Assembly: GCF_020283565.1 (NCBI RefSeq)
Contig: NC_060061.1
Location: 26,759,362-26,823,361 of the forward strand
DNA: 64,000 nucleotides
DNA from: Trifolium pratense
Taxonomy: Eukaryota > Streptophyta > Magnoliopsida > Fabales > Fabaceae
Direction: 5' to 3'
The translations under genes were made by a program, and so were the position numbers. This document shows positions 2,221 to 63,189 of the stretch, piece by piece. The stretch's first letter is position 1; every line of letters begins with the position of its first letter. The notes beneath the pieces are model-generated. The model worked only from the letters and a program-made list of their open reading frames with translations, had not been told where the DNA came from and did not search any database.

Positions 2221-2344
2221 CTACTCTGTCCCAAAATATAAGGGAAAATTGGTCAAAGAAAGTTGATGTATTTGGTTAAAAATTTGGACTAGATACATCA
2301 ATTTTAGTTGACCAATTTTCCCTTATATTTTGGGACGGAGGGAG
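2221..2344. mobile_element. Stowaway-type (Tc1/mariner) MITE
   Basis: A 124-bp element flanked by TA on both sides. The right end read inward is CTCCCTCCGTCCCAAAATAT, the classic Stowaway terminus; the left end CTACTCTGTCCCAAAATAT is its slightly diverged partner. The inverted repeats run about 50 bp inward through AAGGGAAAATTGGTCAA. It has no coding capacity. Confidence 0.85.
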
Positions 2345-50925: not shown

Positions 50926-52632
50926 TTAGGTATGTCTTCCGTCTTTCTTCTTTACCAACAAAACAGGTGCTCCCCATGGCGAAACACTCGGCCGAACAAA
51001 CCTCTTCTCAAGCAGCTCTTCAAGTTGCTTCTTCAACTCATTCAACTCTGACGCTGACATTCGATACGGCGCCATCGATATCGGACTAGTTCCAGGTACT
51101 AGGTCGATAGAAAACTCTACCTCTCGCTTTGGAGGCACGTCAGATATATCATCCGGAAACACATATGGGAATTCACAAACGATTGGTAACTCTTCCACTT
51201 TAACTCCTTCGAGTTTCAATGATGCAAACATCATGAACATCTCGGCATGCTCATTCAATGATTCTGACAAATATTTCCCGTTCATCAACTGTAAATTCTC
51301 CTCTGGTTTCGGAAAAACAACAGCCTTCTCACAACAGTTGATATGAATTCGATTAAAGATTAACCAATTCATACCAAAAATTACATTCATACCACTAAGT
51401 GGTATACACACTAAGTCCATTCCAAAGTGCCTATCAAAAATGGTTACGGGGCAATTACGACATACTTGTCGAGTAATTACTGAACCATTAGCAGGAGTTT
51501 CTATTTCCATCCTACCCGTCATATCCGTTACTGGAACACCCAAACGCTTCACACAATCTAAAGAAATAAAAGAATGCGTCGCTCCCGTATCTATAATCGC
51601 AATTAAAGGAGTGTTATAGATGAAACACGTACCTCTAATGAGATTGTCCTCTTGGCTAGCATCCTCTCCACTCAAAGCAAACACCTTGCCCATCACCTTC
51701 TTGGGCTTCTTACAAGTCGGACTTTTGTGGCCTTCCTCACCACAGTTAAAACACACCACTTTTCCTCTGCAAGCTTCGGTCTTGTGGCCCAGCCTTCCAC
51801 AATTCTTACACCTATCCCCTCTCTTCGGGCAATCATAAGACATATGACCCCGTCCTCCACAGTTATAACAACTTCCATTCACCGGCTTCTTACCACCACT
51901 TGTATTACTTCTACCGCGGTTATCATAAGGTTTCCCGCGTTCTTGTCCTTTGCCTTTTCGGTCGTTCACGGCCTTGTAGTAGTTCACCTTTGCCCTACCG
52001 TCTTCATCACAGATCCTACTCTTGTTCACAAGGGTCGCAAAATCCCTTATCTGTGAAAATCCGATCATATGCTTGATGTCTGGATGTAGACCACTTTCAA
52101 ACTTCACGCACTTGTCGTCCTCCGCTTCAAAAGTGTTGTAATGCGGACTAAATGCGCACAACGTCTCAAACTTGACGGCATAATCAGCTACCGTCATATT
52201 CCCCTGTTTTAGTTCCATGAATTCCACCACTTTCTTGTTCTTCACATCAACAGGAAAATACTTAACCAAAAATTCCCTTTTAAACATTGCCCATGGTATA
52301 GCCATACCACCGGGTCCTAGCCTCAACTTGGCGTTCTTCCACCACACATTCGCTTCCTCGCGCAACACATATGTCCCAAGGGTTGTCTTCCCTTCCTCGG
52401 AACAATCCATTGCTTCAAAAATTATTTCAAGTTCCTCCAGCCACTTGTAAGCTCCATCCGGGTTGTAACCTCCGGTAAATGTTGGCGGTTTCTGCTTCAT
52501 GAACCGTTCCAACCTCATCTCTACCTCTCTTCCAGGTTGATGATCTCTAACCACTATGTTGGTGAGTGCGGCCAAAGTCTCCGCAATCTGGGCATTCGTT
52601 CTCGCAGCAGCCATGATTCCTGAACGAATCAC
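50926..52632 (-). pseudogene. Gypsy gag-protease-RT polyprotein, truncated and internally deleted
   Basis: Gag domain around FKREFLVKYFPVDVKNKKVV; three CCHC knuckles (CYNCGGRGHMSYDC, CKNCGRLGHKTEAC, CFNCGEEGHKSPTC); aspartic protease DTGATHSFIS; start of RT at YRMSASELNELKKQLEELL, then [15 protein letters not shown]. The frame then breaks. In the next frame RT resumes at [18 protein letters not shown] and [18 protein letters not shown] (to about 50815), so about 60 residues, including the first RT motifs, are deleted at about 50937. The start chosen is MIRSGIMAAARTN, shared with the homologous gag at 62376. Confidence 0.9.
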
Positions 52633-52719
52633 AACTAGACGTTAGAAAGTACTAACAGTGTTCCCTACACATGCTCATACGGGGAAAAGAAAAGTCCTAA
52701 TTGGTTCACACGAACCGAC

Positions 52720-52732
52720 CTGCTCTGATACC
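52720..52732 (-). other. Primer binding site (tRNA-iMet) of the truncated gypsy
   Basis: Minus-strand TGGTATCAGAGCA, complementary to the 3' end of initiator tRNA-Met, five bases inside the LTR end TGTTACA. Confidence 0.85.
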
Positions 52733-53175
52733 ACTATTGTAACACCCTAACCCTGATACACCTAAAAATATACTATTTATTTAGTTAATTTACTATTATA
52801 TTTTATATGTTTTTATTTCGATTCCGAAGTTTTATTATATAAATAGTTACTTATTTCTCATATTTTAAATAAACAGATAAAAAGTGTACGAGTTGAAGAA
52901 AGGAGCGAAAACGGACCGAAAAGGAGCAAAAATGGACAAAAAGGCCACACATGTGCAGCCAATTGGGCCACACATGTGCAGTCCACAAATCAGCTCGCCA
53001 AGAAGCCCACATTGGCGCCCGCCAACTGGCCCAAGCTGCTGCTCGCCACTTGCAGCCCAGTGGCGGTCGCCACTCCCCTTTGCATCATGGCCATCCATCA
53101 GATCAAACAGTGACGCGCTATTCAACTATTAGTCCCACATCGGCCAGATTCTGTCTTTTCCTCCTTGTATTTTAG

Positions 53176-53183
53176 TATAAATA
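53176..53183 (+). promoter_or_regulatory. TATA box of the Athila LTR
   Basis: TATAAATAGG in otherwise mixed sequence, about 1.3 kb upstream of the primer binding site. Transcription would start near 53205-53215 and include the hairpin array at 53633-54196. Confidence 0.7.
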
Positions 53184-53632
53184 GGCTAGTTCTCTTCACT
53201 CAAAAAGATAATACTTGACTTGGAGAATTGAGAACTAGGCTTAGTACCACAAGGTTTTCTTCTCTAAAGTTGTGAGTTTAGTATTATTTTATTCTCCGTT
53301 GAGAATAAAATAAGTTTTTTTTATTTTCCTACCGTTACGCTGTCGGAGTCCGTACTCGAGATTCCTTTTGTAATTTCAGGTTCTTATTTTATTTATGGTC
53401 TTATTTATTTCTTGTCTTTATTTTATTGCTTTTATTTTATGCTTTTAATTTCTGTTTTTATTTTTATTATGTCTTTTTATTTATTTGCTTATTTTATTTT
53501 TATGTCTTTAGTTTTAGTTATGTCTAGCTAAATTTAGCGTTGCTAGGATGTGTAGTTAGTAGCTAATAGGGGTTCGGTAGTTAATTCGTGCTTAATGGTT
53601 TTCAACCACCAGTTTTAAATAAATACGTTTTC

Positions 53633-54196
53633 AAATAATTCGTCACGAGAGTGAGGATTATTTTAAAGGCAATAAACCAACATTGACGAGAGTTGAGGTT
53701 TAGGGTCGGATAGTTAAAACTGACCGTTAGTTCTAAAGTCCGCGAGAGCTATTTAGGATTAATGAGTTTTATATTGATTTTCAAAGGTACTTATATAGGT
53801 AAGTGAGTGTGTGAGAGCTGAGCATTTATTTTATCTAAGTATAACGCTAGTCAAGATTTGCGAGAGCTGAGATTAGTGTTTTTAAATCAAATATAATTCT
53901 TGAAAACCGGCGACTGTTTTATTTTCCTAAGCAGTTTTTAATTAAACGTTGACTATAATTCGTCACGAGAGTGAGAATTAATTAAAGTAAAAATCAATAG
54001 AGCGAGAGCGTGAGATTTCTACTAGATAGTAAAAACTGAACATTAAATCTAATTCGCAACGAGAGTTGGGATTAGAGTTAATTAAATTATATTGTTTTTC
54101 AAAGAGTATTTTATTAGCGGGTGTGAGGACGAGAGTTAAGCACCACCTTTATAATTTATAATACTAGTCAAGATTTGCGAGAGCTGAGATTGGTAT
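53633..54196 (+). other. Array of RNA hairpins capped by C-GAGA-G in the Athila LTR/leader
   Basis: CGAGAG recurs nine times, at 53646, 53687, 53743, 53861, 53966, 54003, 54060, 54130 and 54178 (position of the C), plus a degenerate TGAGAG unit at about 53812. Around each, the flanks are complementary, allowing G-U pairs. Examples: AAATAATTC (53633) with GGATTATTT (53655); TAAACC (53673) with GGTTTA (53697); TTAGTTCTAAA (53727) with TTTAGGATTAA (53752); AACGCTAGTC (53843) with GATTAGTGTT (53871); TCTAATTC (54048) with GGATTAGA (54069). Stems differ; caps do not. GAGA is a GNRA tetraloop. Function unknown. Confidence 0.85.
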
Positions 54197-54506
54197 TTTT
54201 AAAACAATATAGTTTCGAAAATTTAACAGTTAAGCTTAGCGCGAATTAAGCATTGAACCCTCTGAAGCAACTAATAGCACGTCCTAGCAATATTTCATTT
54301 ACATATTAAAAATCTAAAAAAATATTTACTTTTCTTATTTTAATTATTCAATTAATCAAAAATCCTTCTAATCATTAGCCTTAGATTTACAAAGCAACAC
54401 TAGAATACGGTAGGTCGATTATTGGTCCTTTGGGTTCGATATCTTTTAAAACTACACGACACGACTGTATACTTGCGGTCATTGTCGCGTCACACGATCA
54501 AGTTTT

Positions 54507-54524
54507 TGGCGCCGTTGCCGGGGA
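54507..54524 (+). other. Primer binding site (tRNA-Asp type) of the Athila element
   Basis: TGGCGCCGTTGCCGGGGA, the conserved Athila primer binding site, six bases after the LTR end. It sets the LTR boundary and the lineage. Confidence 0.9.
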
Positions 54525-54615
54525 CCAATTTAGTCGATATCGTAACTCCGGTGTTACACCGTAGAGACTAAGGCAAATTTCATTTTATTTTTACCCCGAT
54601 TAGTTCGTTTGTTGC

Positions 54616-57600
54616 ATGCCAAGCACTCGCTCTAGAGGCGAAAGATTGGTGCAACTAGTTAGCGAACCCGAACGTCTTTTAAGACGTAGAAATTTAGAAA
54701 ATCAATTAGAGATTCCTCTTCCCGATATAGTTAACGAACCAGATATGGCTGAAGGACCGCAAAACCGTCCACTTAAGTCATACGCTATCCCTTCACAAGC
54801 TGAACCTCACAATAGCATCGCTGCCCCCGCTATTGAAGCAAACAATTTTGAGCTTAAACCTTCACTGTTGTCGGTCGTACAACAAAACCAATTCTCCGGA
54901 AACCCCACGGACGACCCCAATCTACACTTATCTATATTTCTGCAATATGCGGATACAGTAAAAGCAAATGGTGTCAGTCCCGAAGCTATAAGACTTCGTT
55001 TATTCCCTTTCTCGTTAAGAGATAAAGCTAGAGCCTGGCTCCAGTCTCTACCATCCAACTCAGTCGCAACATGGGACGAGTTGAAGAAAGTCTTTTTAGC
55101 AAGATATTTCCCGCCTAGCAAAACTGCTATGCTAAGAGCCCAAATCAATGGATTTAGACAAAGAGACAACGAATCTCTCTTCGAAGCATGGGAAAGATAT
55201 AAAGAAATGATTAGGATATGTTCTCATCATGGGCTCGAAGAATGGTTAATCATCCATACCTTTTACAATGGTCTCTTGTACAACACAAGATTGACCATAG
55301 ACGCCGCAGCTGGTGGCGCACTAATGGATAAGGCCTACAATGAAGCCTATCGGCTTATCGAGAGCATGGCTCAAAATCACTATCAATGGGGAAGCGAGAG
55401 AGCACCCGTAGAGAAAACTCAAACGAAAGGTGGAATGTACGAAATCAGCAACATGGACCAGATCAACGCCAAGTTGGACGCCTTGACTCAAAAGATAGAA
55501 ACTCTAACCGCCGCACCCAAAGCCACCGTGGCAGCAACAACACAAAATTGTGAGTTGTGCGGAGTTCAAGGTCATGCTATCGCTGAATGTCAACTTCTAA
55601 CGGAAGTTCCCCCAGACCAAGTGAACTATACTCAAGGAAATCCATACAACCATGGTCCGAGGAACCATCCATACCTTTCGTACAAAAGTAACAACGCTCT
55701 ATATGCACCTGGCCAAGCAGCTACTCCTTCACCACCAGGATTCCAAAAACCTGCTCAAAATGTTCCTAGGAAGTCTAACCTTGAACTATTAATGGAAAAC
55801 TTCATAACTACCCAAGCTCAAACCAACCTTCAAACTAGTGAACAAATTAAGCAAATAACAAGCAAGCTGGATGCCTTGACCACTCACAATAAGATGTTAG
55901 AGACACAAATAGCACAAGTGGCACAACAACAAGCATCTACCTCTGCCCCTGTAGGAACATTTCCTGGTCAACCACAACAAAACCCGAGAGGACAAGCCAA
56001 TGCTGTTATACTAAGAAGTGGAAAACAACTAGATGAACCAACAAATTCAAAACCTGATGACCCAGCCATGCAACAAGGTTCTAATAAACTAGCCGAGGAG
56101 AGTGAACCAAAAGAAAAAGAGGATAGTGGAGAGGAAACCAAAGAGAAGGAGAAACCTTACGTTCCTCCACCACCATATAAACCACCCATCCCATATCCTC
56201 AAAGACTAGTACAATCCAAAAATGTAGGGCAATTTAAGAAATTTGTAGAGCTTCTACAAAAACTAAACATCACAATACCTTTTACGGAAGCTATCACACA
56301 AATGCCCTCATATGCTAAATTCCTTAAAGATATCTTGACTAACAAGAGAAAGATCGAGGATGATGAGACCGTCATGCTCACTGCCGAGTGTAGCGCCATA
56401 TTACAAAACGAAATGCCTCCTAAGCTAAAAGACCCAGGAAGTTTCTCCATACCTTGTGTCATTGGAAAGTACGTAATAGATAGAGCCCTATGCGATCTAG
56501 GAGCTAGTATCAGTTTAATGCCCGTAGCCTTATGTGAAAAACTGAAAATGGGAGAATTAAGACCAACGAAAATGTCCGTACAATTTGCTGACCGTTCCGT
56601 CAAATACCCTCTAGGTATTTTAGAAAATGTGCCCGTACGTGTAGGACAATTCTTTATCCCAACTGATTTCATAGTTATGGACATAAGGGAAGATTCCAAT
56701 ACACCTATCCTTTTAGGAAGGCCATTCTTAGCAACTGCCGGTGCCATAATAGACGTAAAGAGAGGAAAGCTCACTTTTGAAGTGGGTGAAGAAAAAGTTG
56801 AGTTTATCTTAACTCAATTCATGAAAGCACCAGCAATAGACGATGAATGCTACATGCTAGACGTCATTGAAGAATGTAGAAAGGAAGTGGAAAAGGATCA
56901 AACTAAGTATTCTAAAATTCTAAAAACCTCTGATCCTCAAACTCATAAAGACGATGAAGACGACCCAGCCGAATCTAAAGATCCTACACCTCACCTTGAC
57001 AAGCCAACTTTAGAACTCAAGGCTCTACCCGAAAATTTAAGGTATGAATTCCTAGATAAAGACTTCAAACGACCAGTAATAGTCAGTGCGGATTTAGGAA
57101 AGTTAGAAACTGAAAAACTTCTGAACATTCTAAGAAAATACCCAACTGCCTTAGGGTATAACATCACTGACCTAAAAGGAATTAGTCCTTCAATATGTAT
57201 GCATCGTATTACGCTAGAGGAAGACGGTAAAACCTCTAGAGAACCCCAAAGAAGGATCAATCCAGTTCTAAGTGAGGTAGTTAAGAAAGAAGTAGAAAAG
57301 CTTCTAGAAGTAGGAATCATATACCCCATATCTGATAGTAAATGGGTCAGCCCAGTACATGTCGTACCAAAGAAAGGGGGAGTTACAGTTGTAACGAATG
57401 CAAAAGGAGAATCTATAGCACAAAGAGTTGTAACTGGCCATAGAATGTGCATAGATTATAGGAAACTAAACAAAGCCACTCGAAAAGACCATTTTCCTTT
57501 ACCCTTTATTGATCAAATGCTCGAGCGATTGGCTAAACATTCATATTTCTGCTACCTAGATGGTTATTCAGGATTCTCCCAAATCCCTATTCACCCTGAT

Positions 57601-57683
57601 GACCAAGAGAAAACCACTTTCACATGTCCTTACGGAACTTTTGCTTACCGACGAATGCCCTTCGGACTATGTAATGCTCCCGC
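54616..57683 (+). pseudogene. Athila Ty3/gypsy gag-pol polyprotein, truncated in RT
   Basis: A single open frame of about 1020 codons from MPSTRSRGERLV. Gag: LLSVVQQNQFSGNPTDDPNL, RARAWLQSLPSN-type core, RYFPPSKTAMLRAQI. A CX2CX4HX4C-like CELCGVQGHAIAEC follows. Protease: ALCDLGASISLMPVALCEKL. RT starts at VEKLLEVGIIYPISDSKWVS and continues through VHVVPKKGG, HRMCIDYRKLNKATRKDHFP, CYLDGYSGFSQIPIHPDDQE and RRMPFGLCNAPA. It stops at 57683, where a Copia LTR begins; RT palm motif YxDD, RNase H and integrase are absent. No stop or frameshift is present before the break, so the copy was young when interrupted. Confidence 0.93.
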
Positions 57684-58991
57684 TGTTGGGAAATCGTTTC
57701 ATAAAACACTTTTATAAACGCAGCGGAATTTTAAATCAAAATTTCCCATCAATGGATTCTTGTGAATGAGCATGATCAGGTCTAGAATATTACCTTTGAA
57801 GAACAAATCTGTGGCCGCCTTTCTTGATCACAAGCACCGCACTTGCAGCACCTCCACTTAGTCCACACGAACAGGAACCTTCGATCTCACAGTGCTAGCT
57901 GTTCTTGGATGAAGGCTAAGGGAATTTTGTGCGGTTTAGGGTTTAGAGAAATTCAGAATTTTTCTAAACTCAGTTAGGGTTTCAAAAAACGTAACTACTG
58001 AACTTCATAAGGCTCTATTTATAGAGTTTCTTATGAGGTCTTTAGTTTACACGAAATTGGGCTTCTCAAGCCCAATAACCGTTTTTCACTAACTGCACCC
58101 CCACAATAAGTCTTACTTATTTTTCCCTTCTTAATTGTCCTTATGTGTGTGACCCTGTAGGTTCTTGTGACGTTGGCAATAATATTAATCGTAATATTAT
58201 AAACAGTGAGCGGTATCTAGCAACACATCACTGTTACCCAAGTCACAGGAATGTCACGTGATCTGACTAACCTTTCCGTGATAAATATCTTGTGCATAAT
58301 TACCCTTTTGTCCTCATGTCTATATTGAACACAAGGCATAGTATGTCATCCTTGTCTAGTTCAATATTGGGCCCATAGACATATCTCCCGTTATGTAGGA
58401 GGGACAAATTCCATCTAGGTCACTCATGTCCCTCAGCATGATTCGTGGGATACCCATCAACCAACTTTATAATTATCCAGTTACGGATAACAATTGAATG
58501 ACAACAAGGTATTACACTCCTGCATCTAGGGTACATAGTGGTTTCAGGTCAAAGGGTGGAATACACCTTTTATCACTATGAGAAAACTTATGACATTTCA
58601 TAACACTCTATGTAGTATTCTCACGGTGGGTCAATCCGATATAAAGTTACCCTTAACATTTATATCTATGTGAAGACATGATAACTCATTATCCATGATC
58701 AGTGAGATATGATCATCAATCTACCAACATAATAGTCTTTATGCTTTAACGTTATCCCATTTCACAATAAAGCTTGACTATGGATATGTTTAAGAATAGT
58801 GTTCCTATATTTAATGGAATCTCACGATTAAGTCATACTTAACGTTCCATACAATGAACTTACTATTCTAGGGACTCTATTATTATTTAACACATAAACA
58901 TAATAAAGAAAAGCCTTTATTTAATAAGTAAATTATTCAATACATTTATTATGCAATTATAAATAATTGGCCTCTAGGGCTTACACCAACA
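57684..58991 (-). mobile_element. Copia LTR (3' LTR of a minus-strand element)
   Basis: A 1308-bp LTR. Minus view: starts TGTTGGTGTAAGCCCTAGAG at 58991 and ends CGATTTCCCAACA at 57684. It is preceded by a polypurine tract and abuts Athila RT at 57683/57684. The Athila bases just before it (CCCGC) would be the left target duplication; the right one is lost. Confidence 0.9.
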
Positions 58992-59006
58992 ATCTCCCAC
59001 TAGCAC
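58992..59006 (-). other. Copia polypurine tract
   Basis: Minus-strand GTGCTAGTGGGAGAT directly before the LTR start. It overlaps the end of the Copia pol frame, whose stop TAG lies at 59008-59006. Confidence 0.8.
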
Positions 59007-60430
59007 TAGAGCCAATCAGGCATATTCCTAATACCTATGCCCCTAGTGTGGCCCTCATGCTTCGGCTGAGCAAGAGGCTTTGTAAGTGGATCAGCAGCAT
59101 TGTCAAGTGTTGGTACTCTGCATATTTTCACATCTCCTCTATCAATTATTTCTCGAATAAGATGATAGCGCCTGAGTATGTGTTTGGACTTTTGGTGAGA
59201 TCTAGGTTCCTTAGCTTGTGCGATTGCACCATTGTTGTCACAAAATAATTCAATGGGATCCACAATGCTAGGGAATATGCCAAGTTCAGTAATGAACTTC
59301 TTTATCCAAACAGCTTCCTTTGCTGCATTTGATGCAGCGATGTACTCAGCTTCGGTTGTAGAATCAGCAACTGTATCTTGCTTTGAACTCTTCCAGCTCA
59401 CAGCGCCACCATTTATGCAAAACACATAGCCTGATTGCGACCTAAAGTCATCCCTATCTGTTTGGAAGCTAGCAGTAGTGTAACCAATTACATTTAGCTC
59501 TTCTTGGCCTCCATATATTAGGAATGAGTCTTTAGTCCTCCTTAAGTATTTAAGGATGTTCTTGACAGCCACCCAATGAGCCTCACCAGGATCAGACTGA
59601 TAACGGCTTGTTGCGCTTAAGGCATATGAAACATCTGGTCGAGTACATATCATGGCATACATGATAGATCCTATAGCCGATGCATAAGGGATCTTACTCA
59701 TGCGGTCTCTTTCTTCCTTAGATGAAGGAGACTGTGTCTTTGAAAGACATAGGCCATGTTGCATAGGAATGAATCCTTTCTTGGAATCATGCATATTAAA
59801 GCGTCTTAACACTTTATCTATGTATGTACTCTGGCTCAGGCCAAGCAGTTTTTGTGATCTATCTCTATAGATTCTTATTCCTAATATATAGGCTGCTTCA
59901 CCCAGATCTTTCATAGAAAAGCAATTCCCTAACCAAGTTTTAATTTGTTGCAAGGTAGGGATGTCGTTTCCTATTAGTAGTATGTCATCTACATATAATA
60001 CTAGGAATGCGACTATGCTCCCACTAACCTTCTTGTAAACACAAGGCTCATCTTCATTTTGAATGAATCCGTACTGTTTTACAGTTTCATCAAAACGAAG
60101 ATTCCAACTTCTGGAAGCTTGCTTCAATCCGTAGATTGACCGCTGTAATTTGCATATCTTTTTGGCTTCTCCTGGAATGCAAAAGCCTTCAGGTTGTGTC
60201 ATATACACATCCTCAAGGAGACTCCCATTAAGGAAGGCAGTTTTTACATCCATCTGCCAGATTTCATAATCATAGTATGCAGCGATGGCAAGTAAGATCC
60301 GAATGGATTTGATCATCGCAACTGGTGAAAATGTTTCATCATAATCTACCCCATGAATTTGTTTGAAACCTTTAGCAACCAATCGCGCTTTGTAGGTCTG
60401 TACCTTTCCATCCATGTCAGTCTTCTCAAA
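59006..60430 (-). pseudogene. Copia reverse transcriptase and RNase H, 5'-truncated
   Basis: Minus strand. The frame enters RT at DMDGKVQTYKARLVAKGF and continues QMDVKTAFLNGSLLEDVYMT, QPEGF and LYVDDILLIGND (catalytic VDD). RNase H follows, with YTTASFQTDRDDFRSQSGYV, SWKSSKQDTVADSTTEAEYI, LFCDNNGAIAQAKEPRSHQK and SKHILRRYH. The family usually has YTDAS; here the aspartate is T, which would damage RNase H. Gag, protease and integrase are missing: at about 60430 the sequence passes into gypsy LTR DNA. The apparent start MCIHVFEK is not a true start but junction sequence. Confidence 0.9.
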
Positions 60431-61371
60431 TACATGGATACACACTTTACAAACATCAGCAAAAAATTGCTGTCACAGAGGCCTTCGCTAAGCGAGGGCT
60501 TAGCGAGACATGGCGAACCTCACCAGGAAGTCACCTACTCATGGCGAGCATTGGCGAGCTTCAGCGAACATGTTCGCTACAGCGAACTCCTGGTCGCTTA
60601 GCGAACTACACCAGAAAAATATCTGTTCTTGAGTTTCAATAAGGCGGTTTAACCTTAAATCCACTCAAAAATACATCTAGACATGTTATAAATTCTTATA
60701 AACAGCTAATTCAAGCATATATGGTATCAAGGAACATTAATCATCCCTTCCAAACATCCAAATACATCAAACACTCAAAATCATGTCAATTTCTTGCAAA
60801 ATAAGCAAAGTTGCATAAACATGCAAAACCTAAACATATACATATTCCCTCCTAGATGTTCATTAAGCATACTAAGATGAAAAGACATGTTTATGATAAA
60901 GAAATTTCACCCAAAACCCCAAAGAAATTGGATGAGAGAGTTTGGGAATGGAGGCTAGACACCTCCCCTCTCTTGGATCACCCAAGCTTATGCTTAACCA
61001 CTCTCACCTTAGATTGAACGATGATTCTTGGCCTCTAAACTCTTCTCCTTGCTCGAGTTCTTCTAGCTCTCCTAGGGTTCTTGCTTCTAAGCTCACAACC
61101 TTCAACTTCTCATGAAAAACAAGTTATGAGACTATTCCTTGGTTTGACTTGCTACTTATACCACTCTCTAATTCTCTTGGTTCAAGCCCAACTTGCCTAA
61201 GCCCACTAAGCTTCTATCACACGCCCAAGCCCACTAACATGGCAAAGGTTTCGCTCACAAACTTATGTTCGCGATAAATAATTATACGTCGCGTAAATAG
61301 ATATTTAACACTAACCCAAAATATATGCATATATATAAAATATCGATTTACTAAAAAATCGGGTCGTTACA
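60431..61371 (-). mobile_element. Gypsy LTR fragment (3' LTR of the gag-only element)
   Basis: This ends GGGTCGTTACA at 61371 (minus view: LTR start TGTAACGACCC). About 60431-60910 matches 63526-64000 with only a few indels. The portion equivalent to 62482-63525 is missing, replaced by Copia sequence. It includes a GCGA palindrome cluster (60480-60605). Confidence 0.85.
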
Positions 61372-61437: not shown

Positions 61438-62376
61438 TCAACGCGGCATCTTCGGTTTCTTGCATACCGGACTCTTGTGACCTTCCTCGCCACAATTGAA
61501 ACAAAACACTTTCACCCGACAAGCATCGGCCTTGTGCCCAAACTGTCCACAACTGAAACACTTGTCGCTTTTCCTCGGGCAATCATATGACATATGACCC
61601 CGCTCTCCACATTTGTAACAACTTCCACTTCCTTGCTTCTTCTTTCCACTTCCATTGCCCTTGTTCTCATACGGCTTACCGCGATCCAAACCTTTTCCTT
61701 TCCTATCATTCAGAACCTTATAGTAGTTGGTCTTGGCTTTGCTATCTTCATCACAAATCCTTGCCTTGGTCATATGGGTCGGAAAATCCCTGATTTCAGA
61801 AAATCCAATCAAAAGCTTGATATCCGGACGAAGTCCACTCTCGAACTTGACACACTTATCCTCTTCGGCTTCCACCGTGTTGTAGTGTGGACTAAACACA
61901 CACAAAGCTTCAAACTTAGCCGAATACTCGGCGACCGATAAATTTCCTTGCTTGAGCTCCATGAACTCGATCACTTTCTTGTTCTTCACATCAGCCGGAA
62001 AGTACTTCCTTAAAAATTCCCTTTTGAAAGTTTCCCAAACGATAGCAACACCGTCCACTCCTATCCTGAGTCTCACATTCCTCCACCAAACGATTGCCTC
62101 CTCTCTAAGGGCATAAGTTCCCAAAGTAGTCTTGTTCTCCTCAGAACAACCCATTGCTTCAAAGATGATCTCAACCTCATCTAACCACTTGATAGCTCCC
62201 TCCGGGTTATAGCCTCCGGTAAACAGAGTTGGTTTATGTGACATAAACCTTTCCAATCTTTTCTCACTATCCCTTCTCGGGTCATTATCCCTTACCACCA
62301 ATGTAGTCAAAGCGGTCAAAGCTTGTGCAATCTGAGCGTTGGTCCTAGCAGCAGCCATGATTCCTGAACGAATCAC
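61438..62376 (-). CDS. Gypsy gag (Tekay-like), intact frame in a pol-less element
   Basis: A 312-codon minus-strand frame from MIRSGIMAAARTNAQIAQAL to KKPKMPR-stop. Gag core: FKREFLRKYFPADVKNKKVI, EFMELKQGNLSVAEYSAKFE. Three CCHC zinc knuckles: CYKCGERGHMSYDC, CFSCGQFGHKADAC, CFNCGEEGHKSPVC. It is about 70% similar by eye to the N-terminal 310 residues of the protein at 52632-50926. It ends right after the third knuckle and the polypurine tract follows, so protease, RT, RNase H and integrase are absent. It may make capsid-like protein; transposition would need enzymes supplied by another element. Confidence 0.88.
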   Translation of the reverse strand: MIRSGIMAAARTNAQIAQALTALTTLVVRDNDPRRDSEKRLERFMSHKPTLFTGGYNPEGAIKWLDEVEIIFEAMGCSEENKTTLGTYALREEAIVWWRNVRLRIGVDGVAIVWETFKREFLRKYFPADVKNKKVIEFMELKQGNLSVAEYSAKFEALCVFSPHYNTVEAEEDKCVKFESGLRPDIKLLIGFSEIRDFPTHMTKARICDEDSKAKTNYYKVLNDRKGKGLDRGKPYENKGNGSGKKKQGSGSCYKCGERGHMSYDCPRKSDKCFSCGQFGHKADACRVKVFCFNCGEEGHKSPVCKKPKMPR

Positions 62377-62460
62377 AACTCGACGTTAGAATGTATTAAC
62401 AGTGTACCCAACACATGCTTCATACAAGAGAAAGAAAATCCTAATGGCTCACATGAACCG

Positions 62461-62476
62461 ACCTGCTCTGATACCA
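62461..62476 (-). other. Primer binding site (tRNA-iMet) of the gag-only gypsy
   Basis: Minus-strand TGGTATCAGAGCAGGT, five bases inside the LTR edge TGTAACACCC at 62482. Confidence 0.88.
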
Positions 62477-63189
62477 ACTATTGTAACACCCCGAACTAAC
62501 TACCCTTAAAAACGTGATCTTAAAAACTTTTTAAAGATAAGTAGCCGGAGCGCTACGGAAAACATTTTCAAAAACGATCGTGCACATGACACGAAACGTC
62601 GCAGCGGAAAACATAACATAAAGGATTTTCAAAGCAATGAACAAAATAGTTCAAAAGATAATTCATTTACATAAAACATAAGTTAAGATGTTCACATCGA
62701 TATACGACGGAATACAAACGATCCCCGACTCGATGTTACAACATACCAGAGCACTAATATACATCACAACCCAACTAAACTTAACAAAACTATACAAAGG
62801 TAGCCTACACTAGCTCCTCACCAAAAGTGCTCCACACCAAAACGATCTGCAGCTAAAGCTCGATTGAAACCTCGACCTGAATACCTGAACCCCCAAAGGT
62901 CCAGCACATAACAAATAGGTAGAGAGTTAGTAAACATAATCACATACATACGAATATAGAAACGCACCTATATTCAACCTATCACGTATTACTAACTCAC
63001 ACACATGCCTCAATAAGCAATACACCAGATAACACATACTCACAAATACACAACCAGATAGTTTCACGTCGTTTCGGACAACACAAAGAACTCACGTAAC
63101 ACATAACACATAATTGCACATTTACTCAAATGCGACTAATGCCAAACATTCAATGTCATGCCAACCTAGACACGACTAATGCATGTGGT

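What the first reader, a model, noticed from the sequence alone, without database searches (positions are those of the whole stretch)
53633..54196. Tandem array of hairpins with constant GAGA (GNRA) caps and compensating stems in an Athila LTR/leader
Seen: CGAGAG occurs nine times in about 560 bp, roughly every 40-100 bp, and each time the flanks are complementary while differing from unit to unit. Compensation is visible. AAATAATTC/GGATTATTT, TAAACC/GGTTTA, AACGCTAGTC/GATTAGTGTT and TCTAATTC/GGATTAGA pair with G-U allowed, and inner stems such as TCAC-GAGA-GTGA and CAAC-GAGA-GTTG abut the cap. Known: C(GNRA)G is an especially stable RNA cap that docks into receptors or proteins. Inference: the transcribed LTR/leader carries a multi-hairpin RNA element, perhaps for Gag binding and packaging, dimerisation, or slowing the RT or ribosome. 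It may also be a hotspot that grows by unit duplication. I do not know a published description.
Basis: partly seen in the sequence, partly recalled or inferred. Interest (0 to 1): 0.88.

Follow-up and report, generated by a model that had tools for sequence, protein, structure and literature searches.

The report
Structured leader RNA of Athila-like retrotransposons
The start of this plant jumping gene's RNA appears to fold into a large many-fingered structure, with a tiny reading frame ending just before it, much as in the leaders of plant pararetroviruses whose ribosomes hop over such structures; a similar layout recurs in distantly related elements of the same genome.

Summary
Nine CGAGAG-capped hairpins plus a TGAGAG variant lie in two ~320-nt domains inside one closed structure, 53539-54291. 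Fold energy is -229 kcal/mol against -165 +/- 7 for 100 shuffles (z -9.4). The basal stem scores -66; the best of 1000 shuffles reaches -41.

Four in-frame AUGs share a stop that ends 7 nt before this stem, and an 84% A+T stretch follows it: the pararetroviral ribosome-shunt layout.

I examined 50 of 670 primer-binding-site loci of the same genome, 51 leaders with the window's. In 44 of 51 (nine clusters), an AUG-x-x-stop frame ends 4-10 nt before a long-range stem; 1.6 are expected by chance. Stems covary in the four clusters tested. Hairpins with similar spacing (about 56/72/44 nt), mostly capped by G-A-N-A tetraloops, recur in clusters whose Gag is only 32-39% identical.

Best reading: an old leader RNA whose base works as a shunt take-off and whose caps are docking sites, perhaps for Gag. 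Predicted structure and conservation are shown; shunting and packaging are inferred. Strict GNRA caps are not kept in relatives.

The parts
53176..53184 (+). TATA-box-like TATAAATAG; presumed transcription start about 30 nt downstream (not mapped)
   Evidence: start site inferred
53439..53531 (+). upstream frame with four in-frame AUGs (53439, 53469, 53502, 53520) and one stop; shortest version ATG TCT AGC TAA at 53520-53531
   Evidence: last AUG and stop kept in 30 of 30 loci, one of which (L002) is the window itself
53532..53538 (+). 7-nt spacer between stop codon and basal stem
53539..53592 (+). basal stem, 5' arm
   Evidence: 0 of 546 changed cells in the part outside the search query
53594..53908 (+). 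domain A: five hairpins
53633..53663 (+). hairpin H1, cap CGAGAG 53646-53651
53673..53702 (+). hairpin H2, cap 53687-53692
53725..53764 (+). hairpin H3, cap 53743-53748
53787..53842 (+). hairpin H4, variant TGAGAG 53812-53817 (cap not formed in predicted fold)
53843..53880 (+). hairpin H5, cap 53861-53866
53909..54236 (+). domain B: second copy of the five-hairpin unit
53956..53980 (+). hairpin H1', cap 53966-53971
53991..54018 (+). hairpin H2', cap 54003-54008
54042..54082 (+). hairpin H3', cap 54060-54065
54106..54159 (+). hairpin H4', cap 54130-54135
54160..54197 (+). hairpin H5', cap 54178-54183
54238..54291 (+). basal stem, 3' arm
54292..54380 (+). A+T-rich (84%) stretch after the stem: proposed landing zone
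   Evidence: variable in sequence among copies
54507..54524 (+). primer binding site TGGCGCCGTTGCCGGGGA (complementary to plant tRNA-Asp, recalled)
54616..57714 (+). gag-pol frame as it stands in the window (Retrotrans_gag, RVT_1); opened by the first AUG after the stem

Best explanation
The array is the folded core of a conserved 5'-leader RNA of Athila-like retrotransposons. A ribosome scans from the cap and translates a very short upstream frame that stops 7-10 nt before a stable basal stem. It cannot melt the stem, bypasses the structured core, lands in the A+T-rich stretch and initiates at gag: a ribosome shunt of pararetrovirus type. The shielded core presents four or five hairpins per domain (ten in this family, through a domain duplication). 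Their mostly G-A-N-A caps are docking sites, most likely for the element's own Gag during packaging. Shown here: the predicted fold, covariation, conservation, the uORF-stem spacing and the recurring hairpin spacing. Inferred: shunting itself, Gag binding, and that both act on one RNA.
For: Fold z -9.4 and nine caps against none in 100 shuffles. Basal duplex -66.4 against a shuffle minimum of -40.6, and no other of 1054 window sites beyond -30.6. Domain A structure placed on domain B: 12 pairs changed on both sides yet paired, against 6.5 in shuffles (1 of 500 as high) and 1-4 when slid; B placed on A: 9 against 4.1 (P 0.009). In 29 genomic copies, pair 53910/54235 is GC 11, GU 9, AU 9 and pair 53597/53908 is GC 3, AU 26. 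Basal arms outside the search query: 0/546 and 2/806 changed cells, against 121/1271 just after the stem (26 rows). uORF stop 4-10 nt before a long-range stem in 44 of 51 leaders, 1.56 expected, 11 of 306 refolded shuffles. The stop codon is TAA, TGA or TAG in different loci and the spacer varies. Similar hairpin spacing across clusters whose Gag is 32-39% identical. Published shunt layout: stop 7 and 8 nt before the stem (PMC3291615 passages); UA-rich landing, packaging signal atop the stem (PMC5902531 section 6).
Against: No experiment. In the window the first AUG after the presumed start opens a different 17-codon frame (53395), so the take-off frame is not strictly 5'-proximal. In c0, c1 and some other loci (L057, L058, L066) short AUG frames follow the stem before the longest frame. 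The structure in the window is AUG-poor (3 against 8.9 expected), which linear scanning would also favour. The proposed landing stretch is only modestly unpaired (0.56, like the uORF stretch at 0.57; array 0.30). Seven of 51 leaders fail the spacing test. L047 and L078 lost most caps yet keep the base. L001, presumably from another plant, lacks the uORF arrangement and the hairpin series. Projected pairs are broken in 28 of 104 (A on B) and 24 of 98 (B on A). Among copies, 17 of 40 distinct one-sided changes break a pair, and caps have as many variable sites (4 of 60) as paired (30 of 422) or unpaired positions (10 of 163), though fewer changed cells. The wobble-direction test was inconclusive. 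Gag binding has no direct support.
Confidence: 0.6

Rival explanations
1. Packaging or dimerisation scaffold only. The structure sorts genomic RNA into particles, and the short upstream frame merely stops ribosomes before they disturb it; gag is made from another transcript or by inefficient reinitiation.
For: Like caps on differing stems; GACG tetraloops are involved in packaging in alpha- and gammaretroviruses (PMC516450 passages), and GACG is the loop of one hairpin in most c1 members.
Against: Does not by itself require a 4-10 nt spacing kept in 44 of 51 leaders.
Confidence: 0.2
2. Retained-intron model: the structured core is spliced out of gag mRNA and remains only in genomic RNA.
For: A donor-like AGGTAAGT lies in hairpin H4 of domain A at 53797, and acceptor-like YAG sites follow the stem.
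Against: The donor string is inside the structure and absent from the aligned position of domain B; the uORF-stem spacing is unexplained. Splice sites were not tested in other clusters.
Confidence: 0.08
3. Nuclear export or stability element: the structure recruits host export factors, as reported for the CaMV leader.
For: A structured pararetroviral leader is reported to recruit TREX components (PMC12786077 passages).
Against: Does not explain the caps or the uORF spacing.
Confidence: 0.06
4. No RNA role: a DNA-level palindromic array or relic of unit duplication.
For: The two domains are a real duplication; the minus strand also folds better than shuffles (z -5.2).
Against: Covariation including a GU intermediate, conservation of the basal arms, and similar structures in clusters without detectable DNA similarity to the array.
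Confidence: 0.03

Closest known systems
Ribosome-shunt leaders of plant pararetroviruses (CaMV, RTBV) and of RTSV
   Same: Short uORF stopping just before the basal helix of a large stem-loop (7 and 8 nt in RTBV/RTSV), UA-rich landing stretch, primer site downstream, packaging signal on the upper structure (PMC5902531 section 6; PMC3291615 passages).
   Different: Here it is an integrated LTR retrotransposon with a gypsy-type gag and a different primer site; the core carries repeated capped hairpins; shunting is untested.
Retroviral packaging/dimerisation hairpins with GACG tetraloops (alpha- and gammaretroviruses, Maedi-visna)
   Same: Leader hairpins with a like tetraloop implicated in packaging or dimerisation (PMC516450 passages).
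   Different: Here loops are mostly G-A-N-A, several per domain and up to ten, and enclosed by one long stem.
Palindromic repeated motifs of Sirevirus retrotransposons
   Same: Repeated palindromic units in plant LTRs (PMC2829016 passages).
   Different: Those lie upstream of the TATA box (and near the ENV gene) and mostly share a CGG-CCG core; these lie downstream of the TATA box and covary.
Ty3 genomic RNA 5' end
   Same: Structured 5' end linked to dimerisation and packaging (PMC11381356 passages).
   Different: The passages seen mention no uORF-stem arrangement or capped hairpin series.

Membership tests
Pararetrovirus-type ribosome-shunt leader | short uORF whose stop lies just before a stable basal stem | tested here: met
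   7 nt in the window; 44 of 51 leaders at 4-10 nt. Caveat: in the window an earlier AUG opens another uORF.
Pararetrovirus-type ribosome-shunt leader | large stem-loop structure | tested here: met
   predicted structure present; bypass by ribosomes not tested
Pararetrovirus-type ribosome-shunt leader | UA-rich landing stretch of low structure | tested here: inconclusive
   84% A+T in the window, but unpaired probability only 0.56; not measured in the other clusters
Pararetrovirus-type ribosome-shunt leader | translation depends on uORF and stem | not testable with these tools
   needs reporter assays
Caulimoviridae | pararetrovirus without LTRs | tested here: not met
   a near-identical leader lies about 13 kb downstream in the same orientation (L005; presumed 3' LTR), with gypsy gag: works like, is not one
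Athila lineage of Ty3/gypsy | gypsy-type Gag-Pol | tested here: met
   Retrotrans_gag and RVT_1
Athila lineage of Ty3/gypsy | primer site complementary to tRNA-Asp | tested here: inconclusive
   site found; its tRNA assignment is recalled, no call compared it with a tRNA
Athila lineage of Ty3/gypsy | no extra RNase H domain (separates Athila from Tat, PMC6317226 passages) | not tested
   the pol frame ends at 57717 in the window
Retroviral packaging signal | specific binding by the element's Gag | not testable with these tools
   a zinc-knuckle-like CX2CX4HX4C is seen by eye in the gag frame; the piece given to Pfam returned no knuckle
Any Rfam family | match to a covariance model | tested here: not met
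   no match over 53200-54620 up to E 1

The most novel reading that the evidence does not exclude
Plant Athila-like retrotransposons translate Gag by pararetrovirus-type ribosome shunting, and the shielded core carries a lineage-specific code of like tetraloops (GAGA, GGAA, GACA/GAAA and so on) read by the cognate Gag. Shunting and cap-based packaging in plant reverse-transcribing elements would then share an old leader plan.
Probability: 0.45. Interest if true: 0.92.

Novelty: new variant of a known kind. Interest (0 to 1): 0.85.

Why it matters
How plant LTR retrotransposons start Gag translation behind long AUG-bearing leaders, and how they recognise their own RNA, are to my knowledge poorly known; no cis-acting packaging signal was named in the passages I saw of a 2025 review (PMC12786077). 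A uORF-stem-hairpin plan kept across elements with Gag at 32-39% identity makes both questions directly testable, links LTR retrotransposons to pararetroviruses, and would define a new RNA family for genome annotation.

Tried and rejected
Wobble-direction test (1x1 mismatches with G-U forbidden): 2 U-G against 1 A-C, uninformative. 400-nt sliding folds: weak z in the window (best -2.2), as they cut the domain. Insertion reading (basal stem as terminal inverted repeats of a nested element): no flanking direct repeat by eye, and most primer-site loci of other clusters carry a basal stem at a like place; not formally excluded. IMG/VR scans for gag, RT, primer site and a hairpin string: no relatives. 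Plasmid collection: no match. L001, a contig of a Streptomyces clavifer assembly that looks like plant DNA, has the same primer-site junction but no uORF arrangement; it has one locally capped CGAGAG in its leader, 400-nt z from +0.9 to -4.0 and 771-nt z from +1.8 to -2.6. One search used wrongly oriented loci and is discarded.

Paper searches (listings only, except for the papers cited) showed no title that I recognised as describing this structure; one search found no papers. Wright and Voytas 2002 is not held.

Choices made after seeing data: the 4-10 nt window and the AUG-x-x-stop form were set. The 51 leaders fall into nine clusters, so they are not 51 independent cases; all 50 loci come from one contig. 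Structures come from one member of each cluster, which favours the unslid count. Rows dropped in the rates: L002 (the window itself), L009, L029 and L030. L032-L041 were fetched but not analysed. Downstream Gag was compared in 30 of the 50 loci plus L001; 20 of those 30 gave a hit and L001 none.

Full report
Observation. Each of the nine is a hairpin cap in a local fold; none of the 11 CGAGAG sites elsewhere in the window is. Across 100 dinucleotide shuffles of 53530-54300 no such capped hairpin formed, and the real energy, -229.0 kcal/mol, lies 9.4 standard deviations below the shuffle mean; the minus strand has z -5.2. Fifteen background windows of the same size (40 shuffles each) gave z from +1.9 to -4.8.

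Anatomy. The hairpins form two tandem units, domain A (53594-53908) and domain B (53909-54236). They are 74% identical in the local alignment and 66% over the whole alignment without gaps. Each folds alone into a like five-hairpin plan (z -4.0 and -4.6). Both lie within a basal stem, 53539-53592 with 54238-54291, whose duplex energy is -66.4 kcal/mol; 1000 shuffles reach at best -40.6 and no other of 1054 window placements goes beyond -30.6. The mean pair probability of the lowest 15 pairs is 0.98 in the full leader. At 20-37 C nine of ten caps form, seven at 45 C.

Setting. A TATA box lies at 53176, the primer site at 54507 and the gag-pol frame at 54616 (Retrotrans_gag, RVT_1). Upstream of the stem four in-frame AUGs share one stop at 53529-53531, 7 nt before the stem. 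No AUG lies between the stem and gag (P 0.045 by shuffling). A uORF stop 5-10 nt from the stem occurs in 4.8% of shuffles and at 9.0% of 1673 other window positions; with four or more in-frame AUGs, in none of 5000 shuffles and at 0.2% of those positions. Against a simple reading: another AUG (53395, 17 codons) comes first, and the structure itself is AUG-poor (3 against 8.9 expected).

Selection on the RNA, within the element. Structure from A placed on B leaves 12 pairs changed on both sides and still paired, against 6.5 in shuffles (1 of 500 as high) and 1-4 when partners are slid. A second null gave 5.5 (P 0.002) for A on B and 4.1 against 9 observed (P 0.009) for B on A; 28 of 104 and 24 of 98 pairs are broken. 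All 25 GAGAG columns are identical between domains against 63% elsewhere (the alignment may favour such anchors).

Selection on the RNA, among copies. The genome holds many copies: 40 of 355 candidates were scored, 97-100% identical, and 30 became loci, one being the window itself. In 26 rows the basal arms outside the search query show 0 of 546 and 2 of 806 changed cells, against 121 of 1271 in the 49 nt just after the stem. Caps change at 5 of 1560 cells, other paired sites at 188 of 10972 and unpaired ones at 49 of 4222; but the share of variable sites is alike (4 of 60, 30 of 422, 10 of 163). Two pairs covary over 29 copies: 53597/53908 (GC 3, AU 26) and 53910/54235 (GC 11, GU 9, AU 9), the latter through a wobble intermediate. 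Of 40 distinct one-sided changes 23 keep and 17 break the pair. Pair 54095/54204 is unpaired in 18 of 29 copies and 53808/53824 in 10 of 29. The last AUG and the stop of the uORF stand in 30 of 30 loci (L023 has two other changed letters there); 212 nt after the stem are AUG-free in 28 of 30; of 11 loci with the primer site, 8 are AUG-free up to the position of gag.

Relatives. The primer-site string occurs 670 times in the genome and 0 times reversed. I examined 50 of these loci, all on contig C1, plus the window. They fall into nine leader clusters. Only members of c2 and c3 resemble the array by blastn. Yet in 44 of 51 leaders a three-codon AUG-x-x-stop frame ends 4-10 nt before a long-range stem, against 1.56 expected with shuffled letters and 11 of 306 refolded shuffles. 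By cluster: c0 21/21, c1 10/11, c2 6/6, c3 1/4, c4 4/4, c5 0/2, L057 1/1, L071 1/1, L082 0/1. In two c3 misses (L050, L054) the predicted helix starts directly after the stop of the short frame. Stop codons differ among loci (TAA in most, TGA in L043, TAG in L069 and L057) and spacers differ in letters and length, which points to selection on termination and distance, not on a peptide.

Covariation in the four clusters tested: c0, 19 distinct rows, 94.3% of cells paired, 22 double-changed pairs against 3-12 when slid; c1, 6 against 0-3; c4, 10 against 0-2; c2, 18 against 2-9.

Recurring scaffold. Hairpin tops keep like spacings across clusters: about 55-58, 68-75 and 42-49 nt (H2 to H5), with H1 37-41 nt before H2 in c2 and c3. 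Not every member's fold shows all of them (L085 shows two, L089 two), and some folds have other tetraloops too. Loops are alike within a cluster and differ between clusters: c0 GAGA; c1 GACG, GACA or GAAA; c4 GGAA (one GAAA); c5 GAGA and GAAA; c3 GATA, GATT, GACA, GACG, GAAA and GAGA; the window GAGA throughout. As many GNNA loops appear in 0 of 200 shuffles for the representatives of c0, c2, c3, c4 and c5, 2 of 200 for c1 and L057, 3 of 200 for L071; L082 has none. As many copies of one same tetraloop appear in 0 of 200 for c0, c2, c4 and c5, 3 for c1, 5 for L071, 6 for c3, 178 for L057 and 182 for L082. Gag of c0, c1, c4, c5 and L071 is 32-39% identical to the window's where a hit was found, 70-72% for c3. 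So the plan looks old, and the stems are not recent copies of one another. L047 and L078 keep the base but have lost most caps.

Mechanism. The layout matches the published pararetroviral shunt configuration: a short uORF ending in front of the basal helix (7 and 8 nt in RTBV and RTSV), a UA-rich landing stretch, and a packaging signal exposed on the upper structure (PMC5902531 section 6; PMC3291615 passages; PMC2241666 passages). I therefore read the base as a shunt take-off and the capped core as a docking scaffold, most likely for Gag. The first part rests on spacing kept in most clusters; the second on like caps with variable stems and on analogy with GACG hairpins (PMC516450 passages). 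Neither has been tested by experiment. AUGs inside the structure (2 to 20 in the 44 leaders) would hinder linear scanning; short AUG frames after the stem in c0, c1 and a few others must also be passed.

Novelty. No Rfam family matches the leader. Searches of the held papers listed no description of this structure that I recognised; most subscription papers are not held. I call it a new variant of a known kind.

Noticed in passing
window 55129-55235 (-): Rfam snoR71 (RF00097) matches antisense within the retrotransposon gag, which suggests that family may catch Athila-like gag sequence.
   Followed up: no
window 53797-53804: A splice-donor-like string AGGTAAGT lies in hairpin H4 of domain A.
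   Followed up: partly
L001 (Streptomyces clavifer BMWJ01000030.1): The contig looks like plant retrotransposon DNA, a likely contamination of the bacterial assembly.
   Followed up: partly
window 2224-2340: Long inverted repeat (33- and 19-pair helices), resembling a small MITE-type element.
   Followed up: no
window 50926-52641, 59006-60472 and 61438-62385 (all -): Other retrotransposon pieces lie in and beside the Athila-like element; 52334-52747 and 62078-62491 share 78% DNA identity.
   Followed up: no
L047, about -490 to -280 before the primer site: This leader carries two tandem copies of a longer insert where other members have capped hairpins; L078 of the same type was not read letter by letter.
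   Followed up: no
L048, -1038 to -458 before the primer site: A very long helix (about 188 pairs) sits in the leader, probably a later insertion.
   Followed up: no
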